From assembly GCA_020081605.1 (NCBI GenBank), contig JAHREC010000013.1, positions 434,001 to 498,000 of the forward strand: a stretch of DNA of 64,000 nucleotides. The letters are read 5' to 3'. This document shows, piece by piece, positions 1,851 through 53,345 of this stretch. This DNA comes from Albifimbria verrucaria. Lineage: Eukaryota; Ascomycota; Sordariomycetes; Hypocreales; Stachybotryaceae. Both the position numbers and the translations under genes were made by a program. The notes beneath the pieces are model-generated. The model worked only from the letters and a program-made list of their open reading frames with translations. It searched no databases and was not told the DNA's origin. Positions within the stretch are counted from its first letter, which is position 1. Each line of letters starts with the position of its first letter.

Positions 1851-4800
1851 CTACACCATCTCGGTCGCAGCTTGGCCCTGAGGCACGACGCCTCCGGCGT
1901 TGCTGCGCGAAGTGCTGTACTTGGATGTCGACTCGCCCGTGTCCTTGCGGGAGAAGGAAGCCCACGTCTTGAAGCTGGACATGGACATGGTCTTGCGGAA
2001 CTTGGGCCCCTGGTCGTCGGGTCCGCCCTGGCCCCACGTGCCGCGCTGCACGGGCAGGTCCTCGAGCAGGTGGAACGTGCGCTTGATGAACTTCCACAGC
2101 TCCATGCCGGCGACGAACAGAATCGTGAAGCCAATCGACAGCGCCCACTCCCATGTAATGCCGCGGTGCTTGAAGAAGTTGGTGTTGAGGTACGGAATGT
2201 ACACGACGGGGAAGACAGACAGGGCACCGATGACGACGGACCAGAACAGGAAGCGGTTGGCGTACAGGTCCTTGAAGATGGGGAAACGGCTGTCGTCTTC
2301 GGGGTTGAGGCGGAACATGGATCGACGCAGGCTCTTGAACTCCCAGGCGGAGATCAGGATGAGCCATGTGAGCTCGGCAAATGTGGCGGCACGAGCCCTG
2401 AAGACGGCTTCGCAAGCGTCCGTGTACTTGGTGTTGCAGTCCTGGCCGAGGTTGCCGCCGTTGGCACCCCACACAATGATGCAGAAGGTGACCATGGTGC
2501 AGGCGCCCATGATGATACCGTAGACAATCATATCGACAATGATCTGGTTGGTGAATACACCTCGCTTCTTGTCCTGAGGAGGCTTGCGCATCACGTCAGG
2601 CGCGGCAGCCTCACGACCGAGACCGAAGGCGGGGAACGAGGAGGTAACCATGTTGATCCAGATAATCTGGAGTGGCGAAATGGGGAAGACGGAGAAACCA
2701 GAGTTGTCGATGAAACCGAGACCAGCAATCAGTAGAATGACTTCGCCAACGTTGGAGGTGAGCAAATGCAGGACAAACTTCTGAATGTTGTCAAACATGC
2801 GGCGACCCTCACGGATGGCAGAAACAATCGAGTTGAACTTGTCGTCGGTAAGCACAATCTTTGAGGCCGACTTGGCGACATCAGAACCGGAACCCATGGC
2901 AATACCGACATCGGCACGAGACAGCGAGGGAGCATCGTTGACACCGTCACCAGTCATGGCCATGAAGGCGCCACGGCGGCGAAGGGCTTCAATCATGCGG
3001 GTCTTGGTATCGGGCGCGCATCGGGCAATAACCAGAGGCAGTTCTTCAAGGGCGTCAATCTCGGCATCCGTCATCTTGTCGAATTCAGTGGCCTTGACAA
3101 CGATGGACTGCGCGACCTTGTCGGGCAGGACACCGAGGTTCTTAGGGATGATACCGACTTCCTTGGCAATGGCCTTGGCCGTTTCGGGGTGGTCACCAGT
3201 AAGCATGTGAACTTTGATACCGGCGTTGGAGCACTCGCCAATCGAGGGCTTGGTCTCACGTCGAGGGGATCGTAGATACCGGCAAGTCCAAGAAGAATCA
3301 GGTCCTGCTCAACAGTGCCACGGAGCTTCTCATCTTCCTTGGCAGATGAGGACTGCTTGGCGGTGAAGCGGCCATCCCAGGGTCGGTAAGCAACAGCCAG
3401 GACACGCTGACCCTGAGAGGCGAGCTCGTTCATCTGCTGAAGGATGCTTTCCTTCAGTTCATCGGTCATGGGCTGCTGACCAGCGCCAGTGCCAGCGTAT
3501 GCGCACAGATCAAGGATACGTTCAACGGCACCTTTGGTGAAGACCATGCTCTTCTCAGTCTCGATGATGGACCCGCTCTCGCCCTTGGGGGCGTCGTAGA
3601 TGACAGACATGCGCTTGATGGAGGAATCGAAGGGGAATTCGGCAAGCTGCTTCCAGCCGTTGGTCTCGAGAGACTTCTTGCCGTAGTTGAAGCGATGGGC
3701 AAAGACCTGCAGGGCAATCTCGGTAGGTTCACCGGTAGTCTGCCACTTTTCTTCCTCATTATCATATCGAACAGTGGCCAAGTTGCAGAGGGCGGCAGAA
3801 AGCAGGAACGCTCGGAGCTCGTCAATCATCTCACATTCCTGCTCAGGAACGGGAGCCTTCTTCTCAGGTGGGTTGAGCTTCTCGTCAGGTACGTCGAATT
3901 TGAGAACGGCAGCACTACGCTCACGGTCGTAGTCGCGCTTGGGCGCTTCCTTCTCAGGCTCGGTAGCAACAGTCTTGCTCTCAGAGTATGTAACCCGGCC
4001 CTTGGTGGGGTCGTTGGGGCTCTGCGACTCGCGGACGGTGTAGAGGTGGGAGGCGGGAATCAAGCATTGCGAACAATCATGGCGCCCTCAGTGAGGGTAC
4101 CAGTCTTGTCGGAGCAAATGTTGGTAACACCACCCAGAGCTTCGAGAGCGGAAAGATCACGGACGACGACGTTGGCCTTGCGCATAACGGTAACGGCAAC
4201 AACCATTGTGATGGTGAGGACCCTAGAGCATTGTTAGATATGGAGAATTGCACCAAAAGTCGGGGCGACTTACGCAACGAGAGACTCGGGAATAATGGCA
4301 ATACCCAGAGAGGTAGCATAAATGATGACTTCGTGTCGGAGATCGAAGTGGTTAACAGCAAACACAATGATGGCGAGGATAATAGCACAACCGAACAGAA
4401 CATAGGCAAGGGCAGAGAGCTTCCTCTGGAGAGGAGTACCCTCAGTCAGGCCCAGGAACTTGCCAATAATGTCGTAGATACGCTTAGAAAGACCAACAAC
4501 GGGCTGGCGCTTGCCATACTTCTTCCAGTTCATGGATCGGCCGGCCTTGCGCTGCTTCTTGGAGGTGGAGGCAGCAATCTTGCCGACCTCGGTGTTCATT
4601 CCGGTGGCGGTGACAATACCACGACCACGGCCCTTTCGGACGACAGTGGTGGCATAGGCCATGTTGACACGGTCACCGATACCAAGTTCCTCCTCGCTGG
4701 TGACGGGCTTCTCACCCTCTCCAGTGAGGTTGTTCTCGGTGACCTTCTCGACGGGGATCGACTCGCCGGTCAGCTGACCTTCCTCGCAGGCGAGGTTCAT

Positions 4801-5435
4801 GGCTTCGAAGAGACGGAGATCGGCAGGGACGGTGTCACCCGTCTTCAGCAGAACAATGTCTCCGGGGACGACTTCGGGGCTGGAATTGTCATATTAGCAA
4901 TTATAAAACAATAAAAAAGCGGATTGAGTAGTGAGCTTACTTGGAGATAACCTGGGTCTTGCCATCTCGAAGAACCATGGCACTGGGGATGAGAGAGCGC
5001 GAAGCGCATCCATGCGCTTCTCAGCGCGGTACTCTTGCCAGAAACCAATGGTCACGTTAAGCAGAATGACAAAGACAAGAACACCACCTTCGATGTAGTC
5101 CTTGATACCGAAACTAAGGGCCATGGCAAATGCCAACACCTAATGGGCAGATGAGTTAGCGCAAGGTGTCGCGTAAAAACTGGCTTACACAAAAGCTCCC
5201 GTGGGGTGAGTTGGGGGTGGCAGGCGCAAACTTACAATAATCATGGCATTGAGAACCTGTTTCGTTAAGATCTTGTACCAGGCCACGCCCTCGCCGACAT
5301 CGAGCTCATTTTTGGGGTATTTCTGTTGAGCCTGGCTCACCTGCTGTGAGGTGAGACCCTTATCGATGTCGGTTCCGAGAGCCTGGGCGGTCTCCTCAAT
5401 GGTGAGGAGGAACGGGTGCTTGGGAACTCAGCCAT
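1851..5435 (-). CDS. ENA-type P-type ATPase (Na+/Li+ exporting, class IID), four exons
   Basis: Plasma-membrane cation pump that exports Na+, Li+ or K+ using ATP. Visible elements: N-terminus MAEFP then [19 protein letters not shown] actuator motif (about 4760); TM4 [14 protein letters not shown]; phosphorylation site SDKTGTLT (about 4090-4110); nucleotide-binding [24 protein letters not shown] and [11 protein letters not shown] in the P domain; then six C-terminal membrane segments ending at 1851. The PES in TM4 and the N-terminal pattern fit fungal ENA pumps better than SERCA. Introns with good GT-AG borders are 5140-5235, 4880-4940 and 4223-4273. Four single-base deletions break the frame, at 5422-5424, 4985-4988, about 4061 and 3265-3268; restoring one C, C, G and C (coding strand) gives uninterrupted conserved sequence. 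Expected length is about 1,070-1,100 residues, as in the family. Confidence 0.92.
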
Positions 5436-32814: not shown

Positions 32815-33926
32815 TTACGAACTCTGATGATCTTTCAAGGCTTCAGATACACATTCATCAAGTGCATGCACCGCTTCTTTCACGACAGCCATACTCGGCC
32901 CCTCATCTTCAATCCAGCACTGCTGCTCGAATAGGTGTCCTTCGCCTGGTGCGATAAAGAGTCGTACTTTGTCCTTGCCCAGAGAGTCGCGCATCTCGAC
33001 GCTTATATCATGCGGCACGGGAGCGTCATTGTCCCCATGGAAGATGACTGTCTGTGGCCATTTCTCGCGGCGTGATTGAGCAGAGGGATCTTGTGCCCAT
33101 GAATAACCCAGATCAACAGCCCCGAGGAGATCGATCCATTTGTTCTTATGTGTATAGTATTCGTACAAGTCGCCTTTGCTGTAATGTCCTGGGGTTTGTT
33201 CTACGATTGGCGTAGGTGGGAGTTTGTAGTCTGGGTTCCGAGAACCGTCTGGCAGCAACTTATCCATGGTGAACGCTTGGTGTGGTGCAGTGGTGCCAAG
33301 TACAGGAGGCCCGGAAGTAAACTCCTCTATTTCTGAATATTCGATTGGTACTGGCGAGAGGAGGTTGGATGAGTTGAAGAAGCTGTGCCTGAATGTGTTG
33401 ATGCCACAAAGCGAAAACAGCGCCAGGGAGGCGGACTGCAATGATGTGCTACTAGGACAGTAGGGAAGAAACCTGTCACAAGTAATGTGAGATGGAGAAT
33501 AGAGCATGCTGCGAAAGAGAAGACTGACCGGCACTAGCACCGGCAACAATCACCCGGCGTCTTGTTCCTTCTGGGGATTTCCACTTTTGTGCGAACTCAT
33601 ACGCTGCAGATGCATCTTGGAGAAGGCCACTTCCTCCAGGCTGTGGCATGAGACGGTAGCTAGCGCTGATCAAGGGCCATTTTCGTTGAAGACAAACCTG
33701 CGATTTTAGTTACGGTGTTGTGCTTGCTTAGGGATCCATGTGCGTGGGAAGGGGCTTACCTGAACCAACCAAGGGGCAAACGATCACGACCTGACCCTAC
33801 AAGACCTCCAGCATGAAAGAACAAGAAGACTGGCTTATCATCTGAAGTGCTGTCTTGTCGGTCGTAGACGTCGCATTCAAGCGGCATGCCGTGGTTGGCG
33901 AATACGTGTGTTGTCTTTTGCGACAT
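32815..33926 (-). CDS. Alpha/beta hydrolase-fold esterase (HSL-like)
   Basis: Predicted serine esterase. Starts MSQKTTHVFANHGMPLECDVY (33926). The oxyanion motif HAGGL lies in VFLFFHAGGLVGSG, the nucleophile motif GASAG in VIVAGASAG, the acid in VIFHGDNDAPVP and the His in APGEGHLFEQQ, giving a full Ser-Asp-His set. Introns at about 33697-33759 and 33475-33528. Missing bases at 33778-33780 (T on the coding strand) and 33426-33428 (C) shift the frame; restored, they read GRDRFAPWLVQVCLQRKWPLISASYRL and SPPPLALFSLCGINTFRHSFF. About 325 residues, no signal peptide. It converges on the SulP gene and borders the PKS cluster; membership in the cluster is possible but unsupported. Confidence 0.82.
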
Positions 33927-34480
33927 TTTTGACAATGAGTGGAATAGGCGAAAATGTGCTCTTGATTTAGGATAGAGAATACTGAACGAGGTTTTGCACA
34001 GCATTATAGCAGATACGGCTGCCTAGAGTTGTGATGTTCTCACGACTGTTTAGGGAATGTTGCGTCAATAGGGCGCGGTAACAACATGTTAAGGGCGTTG
34101 CCTAGTGTACGAGATACGACCCACCCGGCATAGGAAGACAACATTTAGTGGAGTTAAGGAGCCTCTGACTCAACACTACTGGTGGTCTCAACTATAAAGC
34201 TCAACCTAGTGGTCCTATATTCCTCGGCACAACGATTATGATGGAGACGTAGGGGAAGTTCAATTAATCCTCTACTTTTAAAGACAAATGCAAGTGCCGA
34301 CAAGCCGTGTTCTGTGCACTACTTGTCACCTCGGATAATCGAGAGTATAGGATGCTGGAATTACTTCGACCGCCGAGTCTAAGTATGTGGATACACGTAT
34401 ATTCATGATGAATATGAAAATATGAACTGCACTGAATAACTAGTTTTGAAACCCCAAACCCAAAACCCGTGTCCAGCTAC
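33927..34480. other. Intergenic region
   Basis: Promoter of the esterase and 3' flank of the first P450. No gene seen. Confidence 0.45.
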
Positions 34481-36107
34481 TCATGCCTGATGCCTTCGGC
34501 GGACGCGAAATCGAGGCTTCAATCCAGCTACCTGCGCGGCCACTCGCCACAAGTTCTGTGGTGGAGGAGGCAGTGGCTGAATATCGTAGTGAAAGATTAG
34601 ATATGCCAGCAGAATCTTGAGTTCTGTCGAAGCAAAAAGCGACCCGGACATGCATACCGACCGTGGCCGAAAGGCGTATACTCTGGACTGGTTGTGACCC
34701 ATGTATGCCTTGTCTTTCCCAATAATTTTCTGCCTTGCCATCAACCTCTCCGCCAGCTTCTTTGCTCTGTGCGGCTGCCATCTCACTGAATCGGAATGGG
34801 TGATACTCCTCTGCTTCAGAGTACAGATTGTCGTCGTGGTGCATAGCGTAACCAGGAACGCCTACAATGGTGCCATATGGCAGCTTGAACCCACTGGGGT
34901 GGTAACACCATCAGGATGAACGACCTTACGAACAACAGTGATAAAGTTGCCATTGTTGAGGCGCTGCGATTCCCGCATAGCAGAGTCCAGCTTGGTCATC
35001 GAGGCAAGGGAGTTCTTGTTCCAATCCCCGCCATGGTGCTCTAGAGATTCGCTGATCTCCTGCCTGAGCTGTTCTATGTGCTCGGGATCCTTGGCCAGAT
35101 CGTTGAGAGCAAACGTAACAGCAAGGGAGCTGGTGTGAATGCTTGAGAAGTTGACAACCATTAGACGACGAGCGAGTGAGTATGGATGGGACTGTTGTGG
35201 GTCTTTGAGCATTTTGGCTTGGTGGATGGACCATTGCAGAAAGTCGTTGGGCTCCTCGACATCAGCGCTATGATCCTTGGTGCGTAACTCATAAAGAGAC
35301 AGCCTGCGTGCCAACTCTTTCTTCATAATCCCATAGAATTGTGATAGCTGGTACCGATTTGGGAGTGTCAGAATCGGAGCCATGATAGGTCGCAGTGGGC
35401 TCCATGTCAGCCGAAGCATTAAAGCCGCCAGCGGAACGGCTTGTGTGAATGCAAGGCTTAGATCCTGGAGCCGCTTGTTCCGGCACAGTGGTGCTCCAAA
35501 GAACACGCGGCCGACGACCTGCGCAATCATGTGCTGCACTGTTGGCATCACATCAACCTCCTTCCATTCGTTACCATTCAAGCCCCAGAGTTGGTCAACA
35601 CATTCCTGAGACTCTTCGTACATGACAGGAATCAAGCCTCCAGTCTCACGCGTAAGCCTTGTTGAGATGAGGTGGACATGCAGGCTGTCGGTCGCTAGTT
35701 TAGAACCCGGTATTGTGTGATCTGTTTCTAGGAAATCTGCGAAGAGCTCGTGAGCGCTCACGATGGAATCGGGCTGGTCTGCAAGCCATTGTATCTCTTT
35801 GGTAGGCAGAAATACGAGATCTCCTAATCCAATGACAGGTAAAGCTACGGTTCTATCCCTTGAGACTTGTAAATGTCCTCCAGACTCTTCTTTAGTGTGA
35901 GTGTGTTGCGCCATCGTGCGCGTGTTTTGGGAAGAACCACCTTCCTGGCTCAATTCCATGGATTGCAATGCCCTTAGGTAGAGTTGGAGACCGGGAAGGG
36001 CTTGATCGTAAGGATTGAGACAGGAACAGGAGAACGATACCTGCGATAGGCACCCAAACCGAGGAACGGTTCTCACGGAGAGCTTCTAGCCATTGCTGCA
36101 TAGCCAT
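34481..36107 (-). CDS. Cytochrome P450, ent-kaurene-oxidase-like (CYP503-type pattern), many frame breaks
   Basis: Haem monooxygenase anchored by an N-terminal helix ([30 protein letters not shown]). The I-helix reads [26 protein letters not shown], the form seen in ent-kaurene-oxidase-like fungal P450s that lack the usual AGxDT. The ExxR motif is AMRESQR. The haem loop [15 protein letters not shown] is present in a third frame (about 34625-34665). Breaks: A5 to A4 at 35925-35928 (restores [21 protein letters not shown]), G at 35857-35859, C at 34896-34899 (restores [15 protein letters not shown]), one before [15 protein letters not shown], and T at 34634-34638. Five losses in 1.6 kb is denser than in other genes, so a real pseudogene cannot be excluded. 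It shares a 703-bp divergent promoter with the lipocalin-like gene. Confidence 0.82.
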
Positions 36108-36450: not shown

Positions 36451-36470
36451 AATCGGTGCTAGTCGGTGCA
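36451..36470 (+). promoter_or_regulatory. Paired TCGGTG element, P450/lipocalin-like divergent promoter
   Basis: AATCGGTGCTAGTCGGTGCA: two TCGGTG half-sites with 10-bp spacing (36453 and 36463), in the promoter shared by the P450 (start 36107) and the lipocalin-like gene (start 36811). Almost identical to the element at 39751-39770. Likely binding site of a cluster regulator (inference). Confidence 0.6.
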
Positions 36471-36810: not shown

Positions 36811-37355
36811 ATGGCGCAGATTGATGGTGCGCGGAAAAAGCTCCTTGGCTCATGGTCGCTTATATCGAGCCGGACAGAACTTCGCGACAAACCAGATGAC
36901 GAACCTACGATCCTATACACTATTGGAAAAGATGCAGAGGGAATTATCATGTTCTCTCCAGATGGTTATGTTGCCACACAGCTCATGCGACCTGGAGCAA
37001 CCAAATGGAAAAGCAATAGCTTGCTAGGTGGCACGACCGAGGAAATGGCGGATGCTACTCAGCACTCTTTGGCATATGCAGGAAAATATGATATCGAGAT
37101 TGGAGAGAATAATGAGATACTAGTCTACATTAGTATGGACATCTCTTCGTTTCCAAATTGGCTTGGCGATAGGCAGGCAAGAGTAGTGACATTTGATGAC
37201 GATGTTCTGACGCTTACACCCTCATCATTCACATTACAGGTGGGTTTCACAAAGCTAGTGTTCTCAAGTGCTGAACTAATCTTGTGTCTTTGCGAATTTA
37301 GGGAAAGATAGCACAGCCGATATTCGAATGGAGAAAGATGGAGAGCAGGACATAG
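36811..37355 (+). CDS. Lipocalin-like domain protein in the PKS cluster
   Basis: Small soluble protein of about 160 residues: MAQIDGARKKLLGSWSLISSRTELRD opens with the LxGxW pattern of lipocalin-like proteins (PF13924 type), followed by beta strands including IIMFSPDGYVATQLMRPG and a central YAGKYDIE strand. An intron at 37240-37301 joins FTLQ to GKIAQPIFEWRKMESRT-stop, and FEWRK is a typical final strand. Such proteins recur in fungal polyketide clusters, where related barrels bind or cyclise reactive intermediates; a role here is inference. No signal peptide. Divergent from the P450, sharing its TCGGTG-bearing promoter. Confidence 0.8.
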
Positions 37356-37629: not shown

Positions 37630-39472
37630 TTATAAATGCCAACTTGATATCTCCCTAGGAAACAATGTAATCTCTGTCACCATCCGTGGACGGTTTTGCA
37701 TGTATCGCTCCACAAGCTCAGGCTCGCTTGTTCGCCTCAGCCAGGGATCACTATCCTGCCGGACTGGAACTGTTCCCGCCTCATCCATACGGAGTTCCAA
37801 CTTGCTGAAACGTTGGAATATGCGCACTAGCGTATAGGCCATTTCCACCATTACCAGTTGTTGGCCAAGGCAGAAACGAGGGCCACCATGGAAGGGCAAG
37901 AAACCCCATGGCTTGGGAACCAATCATCCCACCTGTGCGGATACCATTCTTCAGCTGGGGCAAAGTTCTCGGGAAGGGAGAATATGCCTCTGGGTTGATA
38001 TCTGTCGGTACCAAGTTAGCTCAAGTATGACCAGGCGCCCAAAATAGTAAACATGTTTATACTGACGTAATAGGTGGTTAGAATAGACAATGCCCGTTCC
38101 CTTGAGCACAACAATAGGATCATTCCCATCTGGGCCTCCTCCTCGAGGCAGAGTCGTATCCTTAAGGCAAGCGCGAGTATTCAGAGGTACAGGAGGATAG
38201 AGACGGAGTGTTTCGTTGATAACATTGGACAGTATCTTCATGTCCTTCAACGTTTCGTATCCAGGCTCAGCCTCGAGTCCGATTGTACTGATTATTGCGT
38301 TGCGTATGTCTTTAACAATTTCTGGATGACGCGCTAGTTCGTAGAACATCCAAGTAAATGCCATTGCTGTGTTGTCTCGTCCAGCAAACAACGCTGTAAG
38401 GAGTTCATCGCGCAGAAAACGTCGATCGAGGGAAACCTCAGCAGACGCGCGGAGCATATTGAAACCAGCGTCCTTTTACGAGGTTTCTCCCCAGCATCTT
38501 CAGCCATGATCTGATTAACTGTCTCCGTGATGATAGGATCCATGAAGTTTTCGATGTAGTCGAGGTCAGCCTGGTATTTGCTTCTTGGCACGAGGAACTT
38601 GAATGGTTTCGACCGTTCCCTTTGTATCTTCAAATGCCTAAGACGTTCGAAGCTATCGGCAAATTTGTTTAGAGGCCGTTTGAGTGTGTCGAGACCAACA
38701 CCTAATGTAAAATCGGCGGAAACATCTAAAGTGAACCTGAGAAAGAGGTCCTTTGCCTCTACCGTCCCTCCGTCCTTGTCTAGTAATGGTAGGAGGTTCT
38801 GAACGTGGCGTTCGAAGCACTCCAAGTCGCTGATCCGCTCCCGATAGAAAACTGGTCTAAGTCGTGTTCGCGCATCGTGCCACTCTTGGCCATCGGAGTT
38901 GAATATGCCTAGAGCGTGGGTGTTTGTTAGTTAAAATAGTTCACAATGAGACGAGACTTTTGAAATGAGCTGAACATACTGCGCCCAAGCATGTCAACCC
39001 AATCCTCTCTGAACTTTTTCCCTTTGCCAAAATCATCAAACTGCGTTGCTAGAATTGCTTTGATATTTTCTTGATCGGCTGTCATTATGATGCGCTGGCC
39101 AGCGACCGTAGTCTCGACAGTGTACGGGCTCTTATGGTTCTTGCATAAACGCATGAAGGTATCGTTCCAGAACTTGAGGGTCTCATCGTTGCTCACGGCA
39201 TTTCGAAAATCGACGAGAAAAGACAGACCTTCGCAGCTGTTGAGTATCTGATCTAAAATGCTAATATTTCCAGGATCGCCACGAGATGTACGTACCGAAT
39301 GGGAGTCGTCCCCATACTGGGTTGCCCGAGCTCCATATTGTTTGATCCTGGCTTCCTGACGAAGACGAAGAATGTAACGCCATATGCTCCATCCAAATAT
39401 TACACCAGCCGCAACTAGATAAAGCACTACGGACGGCGAGCGAGTAATGATTTTGACAACATCGGAGATCAT
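37630..39472 (-). CDS. Cytochrome P450, CYP52-like (alkane/fatty-acid hydroxylase type)
   Basis: Haem monooxygenase with N-terminal anchor (VVLYLVAAGVIFGWSIWRYI), then ILATQFDDFGKGKKFREDW, GQEWHDARTRLRPVF, an AGRDNTAMAFTWMFYEL I-helix, ExxR as NETLRLYPPVP, and haem loop PFHGGPRFCLGQQ. DFGKG, RLRPVF and FHGGPR(x)CLGQ are the CYP52 signature; that family omega-hydroxylates alkyl chains. Introns at about 38909-38975 and 37998-38066, with another possible near 39235-39295. Frame breaks: one base at 38459-38460 (restores VSNMLRASAEVSLDRR) and one or two near 37920 (restores the run into VPKPWGFLPFHGG). About 530 residues. In the cluster it could oxidise the alkyl tail of the PKS product (inference). 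Confidence 0.87.
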
Positions 39473-39750
39473 TATGGGAGTCGTGTTCGAGAGAAGCGTA
39501 AATTGTAATACTCAGTCATGACAGAAGCCCCCAAAGACCAAGCTGTGGCCATATAGCTAGGCAACAGGGACTCCCTAAGGGTCTCGAACCGAGGCGAGGC
39601 CTTGGGAAGCTCAGCAACGAATTAGAATGCGATTGCCCCTGTTCTTCCCGTATTATTCGTGGATCCAGTGCTTGCACTAAAACATCGTTTACCCTGCCGA
39701 GGCGGGGCCGCCTTTGTGCATGTCAGCCAGGATTAAGGAATGCCGAAGCT

Positions 39751-39770
39751 AGTCGGTGTTAGTCGGTGCC
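39751..39770 (+). promoter_or_regulatory. Paired TCGGTG element upstream of the CYP52-like P450
   Basis: AGTCGGTGTTAGTCGGTGCC: two TCGGTG half-sites, 10 bp apart (39753 and 39763), 281 bp upstream of the P450 start at 39472. Sixteen of seventeen core bases match the element at 36453. Confidence 0.6.
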
Positions 39771-41759: not shown

Positions 41760-43131
41760 ATGTCAACACGCAGGTCAGCAGAATCACGAAGATGGACGCC
41801 GGAAGAAGACAGATTGCTCAGTGAACAAGTCTCCAAGTATACACGCAAGTGCTCAAGATTTGAAATGAGCCACCGAGAACTATTTTGACACCATTCACTG
41901 CAGGAACTGTCAATTGGGTCGCAATCGCTCAGCTTCACCAAGGCCGGAGCAACAAGGATTGCAGGAATAGGTGGATGAAGATTAAAAACAACTGGAACCG
42001 AGGAGCTTGGACGAACGAAGAGGACAAAAGACTCCTTGATGCCATAAATACTTATGGATACAGGTCCGTGTGCTACATTCCATGCCAATATGTTCCTTTA
42101 CCTTGACGAACTCACCGATTGGTTAGTTGGACTTCCATATCTGTCGCTGTCGGCAATCGAAGCCCTGACCGTACGTCGCCCCTCCCTTCTATCCCACCCT
42201 TGAAGGAATCGTTAGCTTATCCCGCGTCCTAGAATGTGCCAAGCATTGGATGAGCTCGCTAGATCCTGGTCTAAGCCATGGTAGATGGACAGAGCAAGAG
42301 GTAAACCGATTCGTTATTGAAAGTTCATGTACAAAGCAATTAACCCGGGCATTTTTACAGGATATTGACCTGATGAGTGTCGTACATCTTCACGGACGAT
42401 CCTGGAGGCGTATTGTTGAGCAATACTTTCCCCATCGATCTACACTCGATGTTGCCAACAGGTATGTTGTTCCCGCGGATGCTCCAAGTAGGTTCTACTG
42501 GGGTCGATGAAGCCAAGAACTGAGCAGGGTTTGAGTAAACAGATACAACCACAACATCAGGAAATTAGAGCAACCCAGCGCATTGAGTCTCGACGGCCCA
42601 GAAAGTCGTGATGTGGTTGGCCCGCTAAATAAAGCTGATTACACCTATACGCATAGAGATATTTGTCAATCGCCCGCAAGTACAAGCCTTATGGTCGATG
42701 TAGAACCAGAAAATTCGGGGCTTAGCTTGATGGCGCCTCAGATGTCTCTGGATTCCTTGAATACATTTGCAAGCCCGGAAATGATGCATTGGGATGAAGA
42801 TTTCACTCCATCACAGTTCCAGCCCAAGCATCCCAACCTTAACACATTTGATCCTTCAAATTACTGGCAGAACGATCTCTGTAACAACATTACAGCTGAG
42901 ATAGATAGCCTGTCATACACGCCAGGGGCCAGTTCGATCTCATCACCGTTTAACGCAGAAGCCGGTGAGGATGGAAGCCCTACGGGAAGCTCCGAGAGTG
43001 GCAACCCAAGGCGACCGCATCGAACACAGAGAACGTCGTTCACAATGGAAAATCTGGACCCTGATACTCGAAATGAGATATTAGACTTCTTATGTAGGCG
43101 GAAAGTGTCTATAAAGATAGAGACTTCATGA
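41760..43131 (+). CDS. Three-repeat MYB transcription factor, candidate cluster regulator
   Basis: DNA-binding protein with three c-Myb-like repeats: R1 RRWTPEEDRLLSEQVSKYT...VNWVAIAQLHQGRSNKDCRNRWMK; R2 NRGAWTNEEDKRLLDAINTYGYRWTSISVAVGNRSPDQCAKHWM; R3 SHGRWTEQEVNRF...DIDLMSVVHLHGRSWRRIVEQYFPHRSTLDVANRYNHNI. The conserved tryptophans and the SNKDCRNRW and SPDQCAKHW recognition helices are clear. Introns at about 41803-41860, 42063-42124, 42171-42231, 42311-42360 and 42463-42541 are needed to assemble these repeats; the first has an imperfect phase. The C-terminal third is acidic and Ser/Pro-rich, as in activators. It ends 60 bp from the convergent type III PKS, which supports a pathway-specific role. 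Confidence 0.85.
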
Positions 43132-43191: not shown

Positions 43192-44549
43192 CTATTCATC
43201 GGTTTTATGTGACCTCAAAGCAATCATTTCTGTGCAAACTCCAGGGCCGAACGAGCAAGCCGCTATGTTTTCTCTCAAACCTTCCATTTTTCTTAGCCGG
43301 TCGAGAACAATGAGCACTGTTGGGCCAGATGAGTTTCCTTTATTTTCAAATACGTCAAATGATGCTCTCATTTGTCCGTTATGAAGTTTCAGATTTTCTT
43401 TCACATCATCTAAGACTGCGAGACCAGCAGGATGTACTGCCCAGTCAAGACTTATGGCTTCCAATTGTTGACCTTTTGCGGGCACTTGCCATGCATTTCT
43501 GGCGAGGAGTTTCTCCAGTAAAGGTGCGACAGCATTACTTGTAACAGTTGGGAGACTGGGACTCATGAATGAGCGGAAACCTAAGGTCAAATCAATTAAC
43601 AACTCCCAGGAAGATACAGATTAGTGAAAGGAATCCCTTAAATCTATGACTTACCTAGAGGATCCAAGAGACAGTGTTCATCTGATTGTGTTCCAGGTAA
43701 TACACCGCTTTCCCAGTCAAGTATGGAGTATGCTGCCTCCTCATCACCCTGCAGACCGCGAGTGTTACAAACCACGAAGGCGGCAGCAGCATCCGAAAAT
43801 AAAGCCATGGACGCTCTGACTTCATTGGGGTTTTCTGAGAGTATCTTCAAGTCGCACCGAATGTTGGTACTGGTCACATCACAAGCAAACCCCAAAACTC
43901 GCGCTGGACGACCTCGTAGGGTAGCGTCATTCGCAATAGTAGCTGCTGCGCGAATGGTGGCCAACCCCTGCACATCCAATCCCGCTCAAAAGCATTCTCT
44001 GAGCCTCGGGGCGGATACCTATCCGCTCATTAACAAGCAGATCATAGCCCGGGCTTCCTGCGTTTGTGCCAGTAGCTGCTACTGTGTGAGTGATCTGGGA
44101 CACCTCTCCTCCCCAATCGGCTATAGCTTTCCTACAGGCTCTAGCTGCAAGATCTACTGCTCTAGTCCGAAAAACATGGTCAAGCTCGGATATCGTCGGG
44201 GGTTCTGAGCGATTGAAAAGAGGCTCGGAACGGGGTACAATGTTCGGGCGTTCTTTGATCCCCGAGCTTCGGTTAACTTGTAGCAGTTTTTTCATACTGG
44301 ATTTGATGTGTAAGCCAAGTCCTACTTTCTTTATAAAAGGTGTATGACCAGGCAATGAGACGGATGTGGTACCTACGCAGGAGTTTCCGTGTCATGAAAT
44401 TTGGCCAAGTACTCCTCGATGTCCTCCGCTTTGTTGACGTAGGGCGGATAGTGGTGGCCTAAGCCCACCATGTAAACGCCAAGCTGGTTAGCAGTCCCTG
44501 TCTCATTTTGACCATGGTTAATAGTACCGCTAGCGGAGGATGGATGCAT
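43192..44549 (-). CDS. Type III polyketide synthase (chalcone synthase-like)
   Basis: Homodimeric ketosynthase that extends an acyl starter with malonyl-CoA and cyclises it. Start chosen at MHPSSASGTINHG (44549), ahead of GVYMVGLGHHYPPYV. The catalytic triad is visible: Cys in SGIGCAG(G)LATIRAAA (about 43970), His in LDWAVHPAGLAVL, Asn in ENKGNSSGPTVLIVL; the GPG loop is FGPGVCTEM. An intron at about 43583-43655 joins LLDPLG to FRSFMSPSLP; another N-terminal intron lies near 44330-44395. The frame breaks at 43963-43968 beside the active-site Cys: the coding strand has GGGGTT where GGGGGTTT would give GCAGGLA. About 400 residues. It is head-to-head with the HR-PKS and probably takes its acyl product as starter, giving an alkylresorcinol or pyrone. 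Confidence 0.88.
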
Positions 44550-44743
44550 GTTGTGCAACACGCAGCTCAGACCGATGCCCCTAAAGACTGCAAAGGGTAT
44601 CCCCAAAACGAACAATGGTCGGGCTCGAGTTGATAGGCCTGTGCGACTTTTCAGTTAATTGGCGAGAGAAATGAGATCCGCTATCGCAATAGCTTACTGC
44701 ATCTAGATATGAACGTTGATAATTGCTTGTCTCAGGCTTATTT

Positions 44744-44768
44744 ACACCGACTAAAGAACCGACTGCTG
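44744..44768 (-). promoter_or_regulatory. Paired TCGGTG/TCGGTT element 1 in the PKS bidirectional promoter
   Basis: Plus strand CACCGACTAAAGAACCGACT: two half-sites on the minus strand (44745-44750 and 44757-44762) with 12-bp spacing, 196 bp upstream of the type III PKS start. Confidence 0.55.
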
Positions 44769-44870
44769 CTACTGGATGCTCTCTATCATGGATCAAGATG
44801 CTGACTTGGATATGTGCCAAGAAGTTTGATCCAATTGCAAAGTGCTAAAGTGGCTTACACACTCTATTAA

Positions 44871-44894
44871 ATCGGTGCTAGATTTAGTCGGTTC
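44871..44894 (+). promoter_or_regulatory. Paired TCGGTG/TCGGTT element 2 in the PKS bidirectional promoter
   Basis: TCGGTG at 44872-44877 and TCGGTT at 44888-44893, 16 bp apart, with the same CTAG and TTAG flanks seen in the other copies. It lies 263 bp before the HR-PKS start. Confidence 0.55.
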
Positions 44895-45155
44895 CTCATC
44901 ATAACCTTAAGCTGACCGGTACGAAACTGCAGCTATAGGACTATCCAAAGACGTGGCTCAAGTGACCATCGTGTCTCGTCATCAAAATTCCATGTTGTTT
45001 ATCTTACAAGTTGACATTTTAAAGAATAATACTCATTAGTACCTGCTTTCGCTTGTGCTTGAAAACATCAAATTAGCAGCATCCTCAAGTGGCTTCTACT
45101 AAGGAGTATAGTGAGCTAGACTCACAATCGGCACAAACATTTATCATCATCCACA

Positions 45156-48100
45156 ATGGGCGCCACTACTACCAGCGGCTATGCAAATGGTCATAGCGAT
45201 AGCTATACCAATGGTCACGCCAATGGTGTTTCAGACACCAATGGCCACGCAAATGGTCTTCCAGACACCAATGGCCATGCAGATGAGGCTTCTAGAAGCC
45301 ATGATAGCGATATACCCCAAGAAGACGTTCAAGAGCCCATAGCCATCATTGGTATGGGTATGCGACTTCCAGGAGGCGTCCACAACGCCGAGGCCTTCTG
45401 GGACCTCCTAGTCAATGGGAAAGATGGACGATGCCAAGTGCCCAAAGACCGTTACAATATTGACACATGGTTTGGGCCTGGACGGGTGACACATGTAGGG
45501 ACAAAGTATGGCCACTTCTTAGAGGAACTCAACTTTGCCAATATCGACCCCAACTTCTGGTCATTCACAAAACAGGAGGCTGAGCTGTTAGATCCACAGC
45601 AAAGACTATTCCTTGAGGTCGTATATGAGGCCTTTGAGAACTCAGGAACCACACAATGGAGAGGGAAGGACGTGGGCGTCTATGTAGGCGCGTTAGGTGA
45701 TGATTGGGGCGAGATGGAGATGCAGGATGGACAAGATCTTAACCCAACGCGGACGTACGTCTATGGTGATTACATCATTGCCAACAGAGCCTCTTATGAG
45801 TTTGACCTCAAGGGTCCTAGGTATGTATGACCTTTCAAATGACTTCCCTATGTTCAAGCTCTTACATTCTCTTTAGTATGGTAGTTCGCACGGCTTGCTC
45901 ATCGTCTATGGTGGCCCTACACCTTGCATGTCAAGACATTCTCAGTGGTGATTGCTCTGACGGTGCAATTGTCGGAGGTATTAACCTCATTATAACACCA
46001 CGAACAACCGTTGCCTTAACTGAGCAAGGAGTTCTGTCGGAAGATGGCCGCTGCAAGACATTTGATGCCGATGCAGACGGCTATGCCCGTGGAGAGGGTG
46101 TTTCAGCCATCTATATCAAGAAATTATCAGATGCAATTCGAGATGGTGACCCGATAAGAGCTGTTATTAGATCTACCTGTGCTGCTGCTGATGGCAAAAC
46201 TGCTGGGTTTACATTGCCCAATCCGGAAAGTCATGAGAAATTAATGAGACGTGGACATCGACTAGCCGGCATCACCGATTATTCGAAGACGGCTATGGTG
46301 GAATGTCATGGAACAGGCACTGCTGTAAGTGAGACCATCAACTTAAGTTTTCTACTGCTAATCAAATACTCACCCGTCAGGTTGGTGACCCGCGAGAGGT
46401 AAGCGCCGTGGCCAACGTATGGGGAGAGCACGGAATCTACATCGGATCAGTACGTCAAAAACCCAAGTACCCCAAAGGAACCTCATTTCTTATACTGCCT
46501 TAGGTAAAACCGAATATTGGTCATGGTGAAGGTGCTTCTGGATTATCAAGTATCATGAAAATGGCTCTGGCGCTCGAAAACAAGACCATACCACCAAATA
46601 TCAACTTCAAGAACCCAAGCCCCAAGAGTACGCGAGTCTATTGAAATATCTCTACCAGTACTAACATTTCTCCTGCAGTTCCCTGGGAGGCCGCAAAGCT
46701 CAAGGTTCCAATCAAAGCCACACCATGGCCTTCCGATAGGCTGGAACGAGTTGCCGTAAATAGTTTTGGAATTGGAGGCGCCAATGCCCACGTATGCTAA
46801 GAAGAATCCTTCAAATTAATCTGGAGTTGATTCCCTCTGACCACAGTTTATAGGTAATTATGGAGTCTGCTGCATCTTTTGGACACGAACGGAAGCCTCA
46901 AAGCATTCCAGATGACACTAACAAAAAGCTTAAGCGTCAGCTTCTAACATTCTCTGCAAAGCATCCCAAGTCGTTGGAAGCTGCAGTGCAGAAACACGAG
47001 GAGTACATAACAACTAACCCTGATTCCCTCCACGATATGGCGTACACACTCAATACAAAACGTACGGTGCACCAACATCGTGCGTTCTGTGTTACTGATG
47101 GGTTAGATTCCTTCGATATTTCCAAGATCGCCAAGCCAGCTCTTGGAACGAAGAACGATCTTGTTTTTGTCTTTACGGGACAAGGAGCTCAATGGGCTCG
47201 AATGGGCCGCGAACTCCTTGAGAGCGAGCCCGTTTTCAAAGCCGTGGTGGACTCTCTTGACACCGCGCTTTCACAATTGGCAGATGGCCCAACATGGAAA
47301 ATGCGAGGTGATTATGAAGATTTGCCCCTCACATAAGTCATTCACTTGCTAATTACATCTACGAATAGACGAGATTCTTGCCTCCAAGCAGGCCAGCCGC
47401 TTATCGGAAGCTGAATTTTCTCAGCCCTGTTGCACAGCCATTCAAATCGCGCTGGTAGACCTACTTCGAAGCTGGGGTATCTCCCTGATGCCGTAGTTGG
47501 CCACTCCTCAGGTGAAATTGCCGCTGCATATGCTTGTGGCGGCATATCTGCTGAAGATGCAATCCGCATTGCATACTATCGAGGAAATTCTACTATTGCT
47601 CTGAAATCCAGCCACAAAGGTGGCATGGCGGCCATAGGTCTTGGACGAGAGAGCGTGGAGCAATACCTTCAACCAGGTGTTACTATCGGCTGCGAGAACT
47701 CGCCCGCCAGCGTCACCTTAACAGGCGATCTCGACGTTTTGGAGAAACTCATGGAAGACATCCGTACCGCAGATTCGTCTGTCTTGGTTAGAGCCCTTCG
47801 TGTCGAATGTGCATACCATTCTGGTAAGTGATACTCGAGAGATTCAGAGAAACAAGTCGAAGCAGACTGGGAGATTTGAAGTCAAGAAGATTCTCTAACA
47901 TTCTGCTATCTAGAACATATGAAATTCGTTGCAGATGATTATGCCGCCCGTCTTGGAACCATTAACGCAAACCAGCCACAGGTTCCCTTCTACTCTTCGG
48001 TAACGAAAGGAGTGAATAGCGATTTGTCAACCTCTTACTGGACAGATAATCTAGTATCTCCCGTCCTATTCAAAGGTGCTGTGCAGACTGCTCTTCAATC

Positions 48101-51100
48101 TCACGAGAATCTCACGTTTTTGGAAATTGGACCCCATTCAGCCCTCGCAGGGCCCATAAGACAGACCATCCAGGGTGAAGGAAAATCAAACGCAGGCTAC
48201 ATCGCGACACTCGTACGAAATGAAGATGCTTATCACTCAATCCTCAGTACAGCAGGTAATCTGTGGCTGATCGGCGCTCCTGATCTTGATTTAAACGCCG
48301 TGAATGGTAAGCAGGAAGGTAGGCAGCTGTTGACCGATCTTCCAACTTACTCTTGGCACTACGATGGCGAGTATTGGCTAGAGAATCGACTATCCCGGGA
48401 CTGGCGATTCCGCAAGTACGATCATCACGAGCTTCTAGGTGCCCGTGTACTTGAAATTGCCGATGCAGGACCCGCATGGCGCTGCAAATTGCGAGTCCAA
48501 GATGCGCCATGGCTCAGTGACCACGACATCCTTGGCGATATTATCTTCCCAGGTGCAGCTTATCTTGGTATGGCTGGTGAAGCTGTCAAGCAGCTTCGTC
48601 CCGGACATGATGACTACTCTTTGAGACGGGTTACGTTGGCCTCGGCACTTGTCCTACAGGGTGACCCTGTCGAGCTGGTAACTACCTTGGTGCCTGTTCG
48701 CCTTACCAACTCCATCGATTCGGATTGGTATAGTTTCAGCATCTCCTCTGTCAACCCGACCACCAACGTATGGACCAAGCACGTATCAGGCCAGGTCAGG
48801 GCCGGAAGCACATTTGTTCCCGAGGCTCCCAAAATTGAGCCTCTTCCTCGCAAGGTCCCTACTTCGATGATGTACAACGTGTGGCGTCGATTTGGTCTAA
48901 ACTATGGTGGCCGGTTCCGTGGCTTGGACGACATTAGCGCGCACACGACTGAGCAGAAGGCTTCAGGAACCATCTATGAGAAGTGCCTACCCGAGGAGAG
49001 TGCACTATACTCAATTCACCCAGCGGGAATTGATGCAGCTTTCCACCTTTCAAATGTTTGCCTGTGCCACGGCCTTGGAAGGAACTTCAGCACACCATCT
49101 GTCCCCAAGTACATCGAGGAAATGTACGTTGCAAAGCCGGATGGACCTATACAAGTGGTTGGAGATGCGGCCAACAAAGGTCGCGGCGGTTCTACTAGCA
49201 ATCTGGTGGGCGTTTCAAACGGTAGAGTGGTTTTAAGCTGGAAGGGCCTCGAGTTGTCACCTTTGAGTGATGGCTCCGATGTGGTCGACGAAGATCCCCA
49301 TGCCGCGGCTGTTCTCGAATGGAAGACTGATATCGACTTTATCGATGCGAAACGCCTTCTGCGGTCACTGAGGAAAGACCCTGATGATGCGCAGCATCGG
49401 TTGGTGGATACCATGGGTCTGGCCTGCATCATTGAGTCAAGGCACCAGCTTGCTGGTCTCGACACATCTCAATGGCATCTTCTCAAATTCCGTGACTGGA
49501 TGGACATTCCTTACCAGGAAGCAGTTGAAGGAAGATATCCTCATGTTCCCAACTGTGCCGAAATCGCAGCGATGAGCTCTGAAGAGAGGCAGAAGCTGAT
49601 CAGGGAGCACCTTGCCGCTTCTGAAGGTACAGATGCTAACGCTGTAGCCATCTCACTTTTCCGCATCTTTGACAATAGCATCGGATTTTTCAAGGGCGAA
49701 GCGGATCCTCTCGAGGTTCTTATGGCTGACAACATTCTGATGCGCATGTACGACTTTACCAACAATGCAGACCACCTCCATTTCCTATCCTTACTCGGCC
49801 ACAAGAAGCCCACCATGCGTGTGCTAGAAATTGGTGCTGGTACTGGCGGCACCACAGCTACAATTCTTCCTGCTCTGAGATCTGACCAAGGAGAGCGGAT
49901 GTATGGCACCTATGTTTACAGCGATATCTCTGCTGGATTCTTCTTGGGAGCCAAGGAACGGTTCCGTGACTACCAGGCTATTGAGTATTCAGTGCTTGAC
50001 ATCACGGAAGATCCAGTCAGCCAAGGATTTGAAGAAGGGTCATTTGATCTTATCGTGTCTTCTAACTGTCTGCACGCGACTCCAAATCTTATCACGACTT
50101 TGACAAACGTGCGGAAACTCCTCAGTCCTGAGGGTAGGCTGTTCCTCATGGAACTTAGCCCCGAGTCTTCTAAGTCGGTCAATTATGTCATGGGACCATT
50201 GGTCGGTTGGTGGCTCAGTGAAGACGGCAGAGAAGATGAACCCTATGTCAGTGCTGACATATGGCATGAGAAACTTTTACAATCAGGCTTTTCCGGCGTT
50301 GAGGGATATGCGTTCGATGGCAACATGAGCAATAGCATAATTGCTAGGCCCGCTCCGATTCCAGAGCGTGTTAAAGAATTAACGGGACTGAGTGTGGTTT
50401 TCAACGAACCCAAAGCGCCAAAGGTAACAGAAGCCATTGAGTATCTACAAGGACTAGGCTTGAATGTGCAACTTTTCTCGCTTGGTCAGACGTTGCCTCC
50501 TGGACAACCTGCAGCTTTCCTAATGGATTTGGAAGCACCTTTCCTTGCCAACGTGACCGAAAAACAGTTTTACGACTTCAAACAAACTTTGTTCTCAGTC
50601 CAAGACGTGTCTTTCTGTTGGGTCACTGGCGCCTGTCAAGTCGACTCCAAGGACCCTAACTATGCTCTAGTTAATGGAATGGCTCGAAGCATTCGTCAGG
50701 AAACAGGAATTGATCTTGTAACATTTGAGCTGGAAAGCTTTGATGAGAGTGCTTGGAAAGCACTGCACGATCTTCTCAAGACGTTCCCTTCGCGAGTAAC
50801 GGAGGAAGAGGTTGAGACTGACTTTGAATCAGAGTATGTGTTCCACAACGGCACAATCCAAATCGGAAGAATGCACTGGATCAAAGTCAATGATGAACTC
50901 AAAGACCAGAAACGAAAAGAATACGTGGAGAATCTGGTCATTGACAAGCCTGGTATCTTGCAAACACTACATTGGAAACAGGCAACGCCACCAACCCTCA
51001 AAGCAGAAGACTGGGTACAAGTAGACACTCGAGCTGTTGGTCTGAACTTTAAGGTACGAATATGAGACCCGGTTTGCTATTTGGGCGTATTGCAACTAAC

Positions 51101-53345
51101 ACAATAATAGGATGTTTTGATCGCCATGGGTATTGTTGAGGCCAGTAAGGATGGCTTGGCAACAGGAGACTTTGGTTTCGAGGGTGCAGGTGTCATCACA
51201 GAAATCGGACCAAATGTTGAGAACCTTGCCATTGGCGATCGCGTCGCATTCAGTTCTACTGGATGCTTTTCTACGTCACAAACCATGCCTGAGATCAACT
51301 GCACCAAGATCCCTGAATCCCTAACCTTCGAAGAGGCGGCAACAATTCCAGTTGTGTATGGTACCGCATTGTATGGTTTATTAGACCTCGCTAGACTGGA
51401 GAAAGATCAGGTAAGCTTCTCTAAATGGACTTGTTATTATTTCAAGAAAGGGCCTAATTTATTTGCAGTCCGTTTTAATCCACTCAGCATGTGGTGGAGT
51501 GGGACAAGCTGCCATTCAAATAGCCCAGATGATAGGGGCAGAGGTTTGTGGCCCCCTCCTAACTTCTCTAGAAATTTTACTTACTTGATTGTGTAGATTT
51601 TCTGTACTGTCGGTAGTGAGGAAAAGATTGAATACTTGACAAAGGTTTTCGGTATCTCTCGAGACCATATTTTCAACTCAAGAGACAGCTCTTTCCTCCC
51701 TGGAGTTCTCAGAGAAACCAACGGCCGAGGTGTTGATGTGGTTCTCAATTCTCTTTCAGGAGAATTGCTCCATGAGTCCTGGAAATGTGTTGCCAAATTT
51801 GGCACTATGGTTGAGATTGGAAAGAGAGACTTCATCGGTAAGGCAGAGTTGGCGATGGATCGCTTCGAGAACAACCGAACATTCGTTGGCCTTGATCACA
51901 CGGAGCTATGGGCTCACAAGCCTAAGCTATCGAACAGGGTTTTGAAGAATATCATGGACCTTTGCGAACAAGGCAAACTGGGACCAATTGGACCCATCAA
52001 GACCTTCGAGGCCGCCAAAGTTGAGGAAGCTTTCCGGTACATGCAAAAGGTCAGCATATTGGAAAAATAATCGTCACCTTCCCCGAGAAAGAGAGCAGTG
52101 ACGCTTTGGAAGCCGAACCCGCACGCCGCGAACTGGTCCTTCGGGAGACAGAACTTACGTGTTTGCTGGTGGACTTGGTGGACTCGGTCAATCAATCGCT
52201 ACGTACTTGGTGGAGAAAGGAGCTCGACACTTGATATTCTTCTCCAGGTCAGCAACTAAATTTGCTGAAACGACTCCTGAATTCTTCGAGGAGTTACGAA
52301 GCTTAGGCTGCGAGGCTCAGGTGGTCAGCGGAAGCATCAATAACATGGAAGACGTTGAAAAAGTCATGGCATCGGCCACTAAGCCTATCGCAGGTGTTTT
52401 ACAAGCCGCTATGGTCTTGCAAGATGCGAACTTCGTGGATATGAAGTTTGAAGCATGGCAGACAGCAGTTCTTCCCAAGGTCTTGGGCACGTGGAACTTC
52501 GAACAGGCGCTGAAGAAACAAGAGGAACCACTCGACTTCTTCTTCCTCTTCAGTTCTGTCTCAGGTACCGCGGGACAGATTGGACAGGCAAATTATGCTG
52601 CGGGCAATACTTTCATGGATGCCTTCGTTCAGTACCGGCAAGCTCAAGGCCTTGCCTGTTCGACTCTTGCCATCGGCATCATGGAAGATGTTGGTTTCCT
52701 TGCCAGAGAGAGACACCTCTTGGAGGCTTTGCGAGCTACTTCGCTGCATCTACTACATGAACAGGATCTGCTTGATTCGCTTGAGTTGATCTTAGGACCT
52801 CGTGCTGTCCCTTTCAATCCCAACGGGGTCAACCAACCACGAAAGAATTGGATGATTACACCAGGCTCACCAGCGGCTATGTGAACCACAGTCATGTAGT
52901 TGTTGGCCTACGCTCTAAACTACCACTTCTATCCCCGATGAACCGTACAGGCTGGAAGAAGAACCCACGTCTTCTTGTGTACCGTAACATTGAGAGCCGA
53001 GACGAAAGCGTTTCCGGCCCAACCACAGATGGTGGCCTCAAGGAGTTCTTGTCATCCTGTGGAGCGACGCCAGAAATACTAGGGGATGAGGCTACGGCCT
53101 TGTTCTTGGCACATGAGATTGGAACTACACTCTTCAACTTCATGATGCGAAGCGACGAGGAGCCTGACATTACAATACCACTTGCAAGTGCTGGTGTTGA
53201 CTCTTTGGTTAGCATCGAGCTAAGGAACTGGTTCAGACAGAAGGTCGGCGTGCCTTTTACGGTGGTGGAAATTGTGGGTGCTTCAAGCATCGCAGAGTTA
53301 GGAAAGATGACTGCTGAGAAGTTGGCGGAGAAGTATAAACGATAG
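45156..53345 (+). CDS. Highly reducing type I polyketide synthase (KS-AT-DH-MT-ER-KR-ACP)
   Basis: Iterative megasynthase of about 2,530 residues in 11 exons. Domains in order: KS ([15 protein letters not shown], active site [34 protein letters not shown]); AT ([24 protein letters not shown]); DH (HELLGARV, catalytic [16 protein letters not shown]); C-methyltransferase ([19 protein letters not shown]); ER (NADPH loop [23 protein letters not shown]); KR ([36 protein letters not shown]); ACP with phosphopantetheine serine in [14 protein letters not shown]. No thioesterase, reductase or condensation domain follows the ACP. Introns: 45821-45876, 46325-46380, 46450-46503, 46628-46678, 46792-46853, 47308-47368, 47824-47913, 51054-51110, 51411-51468, 51544-51596. 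Single-base losses at 47483-47485, 52049-52050, 52143-52145 and 52850-52851 shift the frame; each repair rejoins conserved sequence. All reductive sites look intact. Confidence 0.95.
45207..45296 (+). repeat. 30-bp coding minisatellite in the HR-PKS leader
   Basis: Three tandem 30-bp units begin ACCAATGG(T/C)CA(C/T)GC and encode [20 protein letters not shown] and [10 protein letters not shown]. They form a flexible Asn/Gly/His leader before the KS domain. Confidence 0.85.

What the first reader, a model, noticed from the sequence alone, without database searches (positions are those of the whole stretch)
43192..53345. Head-to-head highly reducing PKS and type III PKS: a hybrid alkylresorcinol/pyrone pathway
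A complete HR-PKS (KS-AT-DH-MT-ER-KR-ACP) without any release domain is divergently paired, across 606 bp, with a type III PKS that keeps its Cys-His-Asn triad. Type III PKSs accept acyl starters, so the reduced chain can be passed directly and cyclised. This logic is known for only a few fungal products (I recall soppilines from HR-PKS plus type III PKS plus P450). Here the HR-PKS also has an apparently intact C-methyltransferase and ER, so a methyl-branched saturated chain is possible. Two P450s and a lipocalin-like protein nearby could decorate it.
Basis: partly seen in the sequence, partly recalled or inferred. Interest (0 to 1): 0.88.

Follow-up and report, generated by a model that had tools for sequence, protein, structure and literature searches.

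The report
Paired polyketide-synthase gene cluster, fungus
A fungal chromosome carries two head-to-head genes that probably work as a relay, one building a fatty chain and the other closing it into a ring; such pairs are already known in fungi, but this branch has no product that I could find, an altered active site and its own shared promoter signal.

Summary
A KS-AT-DH-MT-ER-KR-ACP highly reducing PKS (HR-PKS) and a type III PKS (T3PKS) diverge from a 606-bp promoter. Neither is one clean frame: the HR-PKS has four intron-less frame changes, the T3PKS one. Actin and HSP70 genes of the same assembly break at a similar rate, so assembly error is likelier than decay.

The pair is conserved. Nine contigs hold relatives of both enzymes, seven with consecutive locus tags, and both trees show the same groups. 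The T3PKS falls with Immersiella (Cercophora) caudata, i.e. 'clade 7' of the 2020 survey that described such pairs, and outside the soppiline (PspB) branch. It is a new member of a known kind.

Added here: (1) a combination of active-site changes shared by the clade (second thiol and bulky gate residue lost); (2) a CYP52-like P450 that lies near the pair in two relatives; (3) the word ACCGACTA, 5 of whose 6 window copies lie in promoters of the P450s, lipocalin and PKS pair; (4) no cyclopropane-synthetase gene at the locus, unlike nearly all published clade 7 loci.

Sequence does not decide the product (resorcinol, pyrone or other), and every chemical step is inferred.

The parts
43192..44549 (-). 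Type III PKS, four coding stretches, about 400 aa, with one intron-less frame change after the active-site Cys motif
   Evidence: Pfam PF00195 and PF02797; splice model; relative P0001 aligns gaplessly across the break
45156..53345 (+). Highly reducing PKS, KS-AT-DH-MT-ER-KR-ACP, about 2530 aa, no release domain, four intron-less frame changes
   Evidence: Pfam on pieces; splice model; relative P0122
44550..45155 (.). 606-bp shared promoter with three ACCGACT sites (44746+, 44758+, 44886-)
37633..39472 (-). CYP52-like P450 (P450-2), also broken by at least one intron-less frame change
   Evidence: Pfam pieces; relatives in Immersiella (68%) and Helicocarpus AJ79_02315 (57%) on the PKS contigs
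39750..39767 (-). Tandem ACCGACTA sites, about 280-295 bp upstream of P450-2
36811..37308 (+). Lipocalin-like gene (Lipocalin_5)
   Evidence: PF13924, E 2.4e-24; start chosen by eye
34443..36107 (-). Second P450 (P450-1), in pieces
   Evidence: PF00067; start chosen by eye
36460..36467 (-). ACCGACTA site between P450-1 and the lipocalin gene
41760..43131 (+). Myb-type DNA-binding protein gene next to the T3PKS (convergent); candidate regulator, no ACCGACT site of its own
   Evidence: PF00249 over cut-off in two pieces; extent by eye; sites

Best explanation
A clade 7 hybrid polyketide cluster. Inferred mechanism: the HR-PKS builds a reduced, possibly C-methylated acyl chain and keeps it on its carrier domain, having no release domain. 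The T3PKS takes the chain (as acyl-ACP or after transfer to CoA), adds malonyl units and frees it by closing a ring. The CYP52-like P450 then oxidises the far end of the alkyl tail; the second P450 and the lipocalin act later. The genes form one regulon through ACCGACTA promoter sites, perhaps bound by the Myb-type protein. Shown: anatomy, pairing in relatives, clade, active-site changes, recurrent promoter word. Inferred: each chemical step, their order, the regulator, and that the enzymes work. Ring type open.
For: Domains and triad. Nine contigs with both relatives, seven with consecutive locus tags (lists compared by eye). Matching groups in two trees. P450-2 relatives on the PKS contigs of Helicocarpus and Immersiella. 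Five of six ACCGACTA copies in the window lie in promoters of these genes; 0 of 1500 simulated promoter triples matched that recurrence; the tandem form occurs twice in the genome, both here. Frame breaks match the genome's background. Published PspB and FscB depend on their type I PKS, and CcauPKS had minimal or no activity on CoA substrates (PMC12559476, text read).
Against: Frame breaks in both PKSs and P450-2 could be real; no reads are at hand. No expression data. For the nearest kin (Fusarium, Colletotrichum) adjacency was not testable with the listed representatives. Usnochroma has a 61% P450 relative on a contig other than its HR-PKS. Other cuts of the motif are weaker: ACCGACTAAA with one mismatch, 8 of 100 shuffles reach the count; AACCGACT, 21 of 100; ACCGACT in the whole window, 6 of 100. 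The Myb gene's binding is a guess.
Confidence: 0.72

Rival explanations
1. The frame changes are real and the cluster is decaying; no working enzyme is made.
For: One frame change in the T3PKS, four in the HR-PKS, at least one in P450-2. The 2020 survey reports a clade 7 locus with only remnants of the reducing PKS (PMC6985275, section 14).
Against: Actin and HSP70 genes of the same assembly show 11 gapless changes in 24.4 kb; protein sequence between breaks is well conserved (75-92% to P0122 in five of seven pieces). RPB2 pieces, however, show none.
Confidence: 0.12
2. The T3PKS works alone on ordinary fatty acyl-CoA; its place beside the HR-PKS is not functional.
For: Many fungal T3PKSs take free fatty acyl-CoA (PMC12559476, PMC6274091, passages).
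Against: Adjacency kept in nine contigs and matching trees; CcauPKS, which I take to be the clade 7 enzyme of Cercophora caudata, had minimal or no activity on the CoA panel (PMC12559476).
Confidence: 0.08
3. The T3PKS receives the chain but makes something other than an alkylresorcinol or alkylpyrone, because its pocket has been rebuilt.
For: Clade stem of 1.07 changes per column. In six clade rows position 120 is Gly or Ala, 186 Thr, 252 Cys or Ser, and 307 Ala in the five that reach it; PspB has Cys, Cys, Phe, Gly. Cys120 is called a second active-site thiol of ORAS (PMC6274091, passage).
Against: The triad is kept in the window. Single changes occur outside the clade: in the 122-row alignment Cys120 is missing in 37 rows and Phe252 in 58, gaps counted. 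A wider pocket could still make an ordinary ring.
Confidence: 0.25

Closest known systems
Clade 7 type III PKS / reducing PKS loci (Navarro-Munoz and Collemare 2020, PMC6985275)
   Same: Adjacent, opposite PKS pair; P450 at the locus; T3PKS and HR-PKS both group with Immersiella (Cercophora) caudata
   Different: No cyclopropane-synthetase gene found at this locus, whereas that survey finds the domain in nearly all clade 7 loci; Myb-type gene beside the pair
Soppiline cluster, PspA/PspB (Kaneko 2019, not read; as told in PMC6985275 and PMC12559476)
   Same: HR-PKS supplies the T3PKS; P450 in the cluster
   Different: T3PKS 43% identical to PspB and in another branch; positions 120, 186, 252, 307 differ
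Scirpilin cluster, FscB, Fusarium scirpi (Zhang 2024, not held; as told in PMC12559476)
   Same: T3PKS dependent on a type I PKS
   Different: Not testable: FscB sequence not obtained. I judge it another branch because it resembles XylPKS of Xylariaceae sp. FL1272 and no Xylariaceae row was among the closest listed hits; this is inference
ORAS of Neurospora crassa (PDB 3e1h, 3euo)
   Same: Fold family and Cys-His-Asn triad
   Different: Stand-alone enzyme; has Cys120 and Phe252, here Gly and Cys

Membership tests
Fungal type III PKS | Both chalcone/stilbene synthase domains and Cys-His-Asn triad | tested here: met
   PF00195 52.9 bits and PF02797 57.9 bits, cut-off 27 each; C152, H305, N338
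Fungal type III PKS | One intact open frame | tested here: not met
   One intron-less frame change in this assembly; background control
Highly reducing PKS without release domain | KS-AT-DH-MT-ER-KR-ACP in order, then stop | tested here: met
   Pfam on pieces; four frame changes in this assembly
Clade 7 HR-PKS/T3PKS pair | Groups with Cercophora (Immersiella) caudata in both trees | tested here: met
   100/100 six-row group, 100; synonymy of the two names recalled, not shown
Clade 7 HR-PKS/T3PKS pair | Adjacent, opposite pair with a P450 | tested here: met
Clade 7 HR-PKS/T3PKS pair | Cyclopropane-synthetase gene at the locus (nearly all, not all, published loci) | tested here: not met
   Whole-genome search: nearest on C10 at 4.30 Mb; tblastn of a partial CMAS protein found nothing below E 0.63 in the window. 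Broken frames could hide weak remains
Soppiline branch (clade 8) | T3PKS groups with PspB | tested here: not met
Soppiline-type logic | T3PKS uses the HR-PKS chain | not testable with these tools
   needs co-expression or in vitro assay
CYP52 P450 | Close relatives named CYP52 | tested here: inconclusive
   Several source names say 52A11; no tree, no activity

The most novel reading that the evidence does not exclude
Clade 7 T3PKSs have rebuilt their active site (second thiol gone, gate Phe replaced by Cys or Ser) to take a bulky methyl-branched chain straight from the HR-PKS carrier domain and close it into a scaffold that no known fungal T3PKS makes, with the tail oxidised by a dedicated CYP52-like P450, all under one ACCGACTA promoter code.
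Probability: 0.25. Interest if true: 0.75.

Novelty: new member of a known kind. Interest (0 to 1): 0.5.

Why it matters
The 2020 survey states that no clade 7 T3PKS had been characterised, and I found no product of the clade in the library searched (open-licence papers only). The locus offers a concrete gene set, a testable promoter element and named pocket positions, which makes the question of how a T3PKS takes a chain from an HR-PKS open to direct test. It also shows that frame breaks in this assembly should not be read as pseudogenes without a control.

Tried and rejected
Pseudogene reading: set back, not excluded, by the actin/HSP70 control. Intron at the T3PKS frame change: no usable GT-AG pair in the right phase (by eye). 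Soppiline branch: rejected by the tree. Stemphol as a parallel: that paper reports a single T3PKS in the genome and no link to an HR-PKS in the passages seen (PMC12443245). FscB/scirpilin: could not be tested (paper not held; the name occurs in one held paper only). Other T3PKS copies in this genome: two further loci, less like P0001 (36-42%) and without an HR-PKS match in the about 3.4 kb held of each. Host species: not determined. Literature on a Myb regulator: the eight listed papers were mostly on plants. Fusarium avenaceum genome paper lists 2-3 type III PKSs without a product (PMC4237347, passages).

Limits of counts: the lists show 120 of 187, 120 of 5468 and 120 of 1718 matches, after a first cut to about 8000 candidates each. 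The HR-PKS search used residues up to the ER domain. Trees used 44 of 120 T3PKS and 32 of 120 HR-PKS relatives picked by hand; PspA of P. soppii is not in the HR-PKS tree, and a protein named pspA (P0174, Cladobotryum) falls in another branch there. The frame count used 49 of 51 table rows (two nested rows left out); one of the 11 changes has a 19-nt gap and is doubtful. The tandem-site pattern took its spacing from the two sites it found, so only the absence elsewhere is informative (backwards control: 7 matches). A 19-base version with up to 3 mismatches found 10 places against 28 for the control, the exact one being ours.

Full report
What is there. The window lies in a 48.4-Mb fungal genome of 41 contigs. 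From 43192 to 53345 a type III PKS (minus strand) and a highly reducing type I PKS (plus strand) diverge from a 606-bp gap. Pfam on separate pieces finds ketoacyl synthase, acyltransferase, dehydratase, methyltransferase, enoyl- and ketoreductase and carrier domains and then the stop, with no release domain; the partner has both chalcone/stilbene synthase domains. Splice sites chosen by eye give models of about 400 aa and 2530 aa.

Frame breaks. Both genes change frame without an intron: once in the T3PKS, just after the active-site Cys motif, and four times in the HR-PKS. The closest relatives align across the T3PKS, ER-KR and KR-ACP breaks without a gap. Control: the actin, HSP70 and RPB2 matches of the same genome hold 5, 6 and 0 gapless changes in 24.4 kb (from the tables). 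The pair has 5 in about 8.8 kb of coding sequence. The simplest reading is assembly indels. Real decay is not excluded, as no reads are at hand and RPB2 shows no break.

The pair is conserved. The T3PKS is 77% identical to a Fusarium lateritium protein, 73% to F. pseudoanthophilum, 72% to Immersiella caudata, 70% to Helicocarpus griseus and 43% to PspB. The HR-PKS, searched up to its ER domain, is 86% identical to a partial Colletotrichum chlorophyti protein, 84% to Fusarium gaditjirri, 75% to Immersiella and 74% to Helicocarpus. Seven of them show consecutive locus tags: AJ79_02311/02312, MMC17_008269/008270, ABOM_000924/000925, EsH8_VII_000054/000055, DV735_g511/g512, DV738_g3093/g3094, Q9169_006904/006905. 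For the nearest kin, Fusarium and Colletotrichum, the listed representatives differ, so adjacency was not tested there. Trees of 45 T3PKS rows and 33 HR-PKS rows show the same groups: Immersiella, Helicocarpus, Fusarium and the window together (100/100 and 100); a group of lichen fungi; and one with A. bombycis, the Chaetothyriales and C. jinshuiense, where PspB also falls in the T3PKS tree.

Place among known systems. The 2020 survey (PMC6985275; section 14 read, other parts as passages) describes adjacent, often opposite, co-evolving T3PKS and reducing-PKS genes in its clades 7 and 8, most with P450 genes. Its clade 7 figure text names Cercophora caudata, which I recall to be Immersiella caudata. 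The window therefore belongs to clade 7, while PspB of the soppiline pathway is in clade 8. The survey says no clade 7 T3PKS had been characterised. A 2025 study (PMC12559476; parts 1 to 5 of 7 read) reports that CcauPKS, which I take to be the Cercophora enzyme, showed minimal or no activity on CoA substrates, and that PspB and FscB gave product only with their type I partners. I found no product of clade 7 in the library searched; most subscription papers are not held.

Active site. Aligned to ORAS, the six clade rows have Gly or Ala at position 120 (Cys in 28 of 33 others), Thr at 186 (Cys in 31 of 33) and Cys or Ser at 252 (Phe, Tyr or Trp in 26 of 33); the five that reach 307 have Ala (Gly in 32 of 33). 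PspB has Cys, Cys, Phe and Gly. In the wider alignment of 122 rows single changes also occur outside the clade (Cys120 in 85 rows, Phe252 in 64), so it is the combination that marks the clade. ORAS Cys120 is described as a second active-site thiol (PMC6274091, passage), and the 2020 survey speaks of a Phe that controls product specificity; that this is 252 is recalled. The triad is kept in the window; Immersiella has Ser at the Asn position. The clade stem is long, 1.07 changes per column. This points to a changed substrate or product shape.

Neighbours. Usnochroma, with a 61% relative, has it on another contig than its HR-PKS. A second P450, a lipocalin-like gene and a Myb-type gene lie between 34.4 and 43.1 kb. 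Clade 7 loci nearly all hold a cyclopropane synthetase in the survey; none was found here. A Fusarium graminearum record (P0257) joins such a domain to a P450 close to this one.

A shared promoter word. ACCGACT is the only 7-mer with three copies in the PKS promoter. ACCGACTA occurs six times in the window: two in the PKS promoter, two in tandem upstream of the CYP52-like P450, one between the second P450 and the lipocalin gene, and one elsewhere. None of 1500 simulated promoter triples had a 7-mer this recurrent; 67 of 1071 overlapping 700-bp pieces elsewhere in the window hold an ACCGACT. The tandem form occurs twice in the genome, both here, against 7 for the backwards control; its spacing was taken from these sites. 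Other cuts of the motif are less striking. No ACCGACT lies just upstream of the Myb gene; its role as binder is a guess.

Verdict. A real, conserved and probably working hybrid cluster of a known kind, in a branch without a known product as far as I could search, with a pocket signature, a P450 partner and a promoter word added here. The chemistry is inferred.

Noticed in passing
36460, 39750, 39760, 44746, 44885: ACCGACTA in the promoters of the cluster genes, a candidate cis-element; the only two tandem ACCGACT pairs (spacing 3-5) in the genome are at 39751 and 44746.
   Followed up: partly
1851-4893 (-): A P-type ATPase gene appears to change frame as well (by eye), in line with assembly indels.
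   Followed up: partly
L001 (C15:1107107) and L002 (C33:2727641): Two further type III PKS loci in this genome, of other types; L002 also carries a stop inside the match.
   Followed up: partly
P0247, P0255, P0257 (Fusarium graminearum records): P450s close to P450-2 predicted as fusions with methyltransferase or cyclopropane-synthetase-like sequence; perhaps a remnant of a clade 7 locus without the PKS pair.
   Followed up: no
P0004 (Immersiella caudata T3PKS): Ser in place of the catalytic Asn; may bear on the weak activity reported for CcauPKS.
   Followed up: no
P0134, P0152 (Colletotrichum HR-PKSs): Sister to the clade 7 HR-PKSs, but without the listed methyltransferase domains and not seen paired with a T3PKS in the lists.
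   Followed up: no
32818-34022 (-): Hydrolase-like reading frames (by eye; no Pfam match), with no ACCGACT site nearby; probably outside the cluster.
   Followed up: partly
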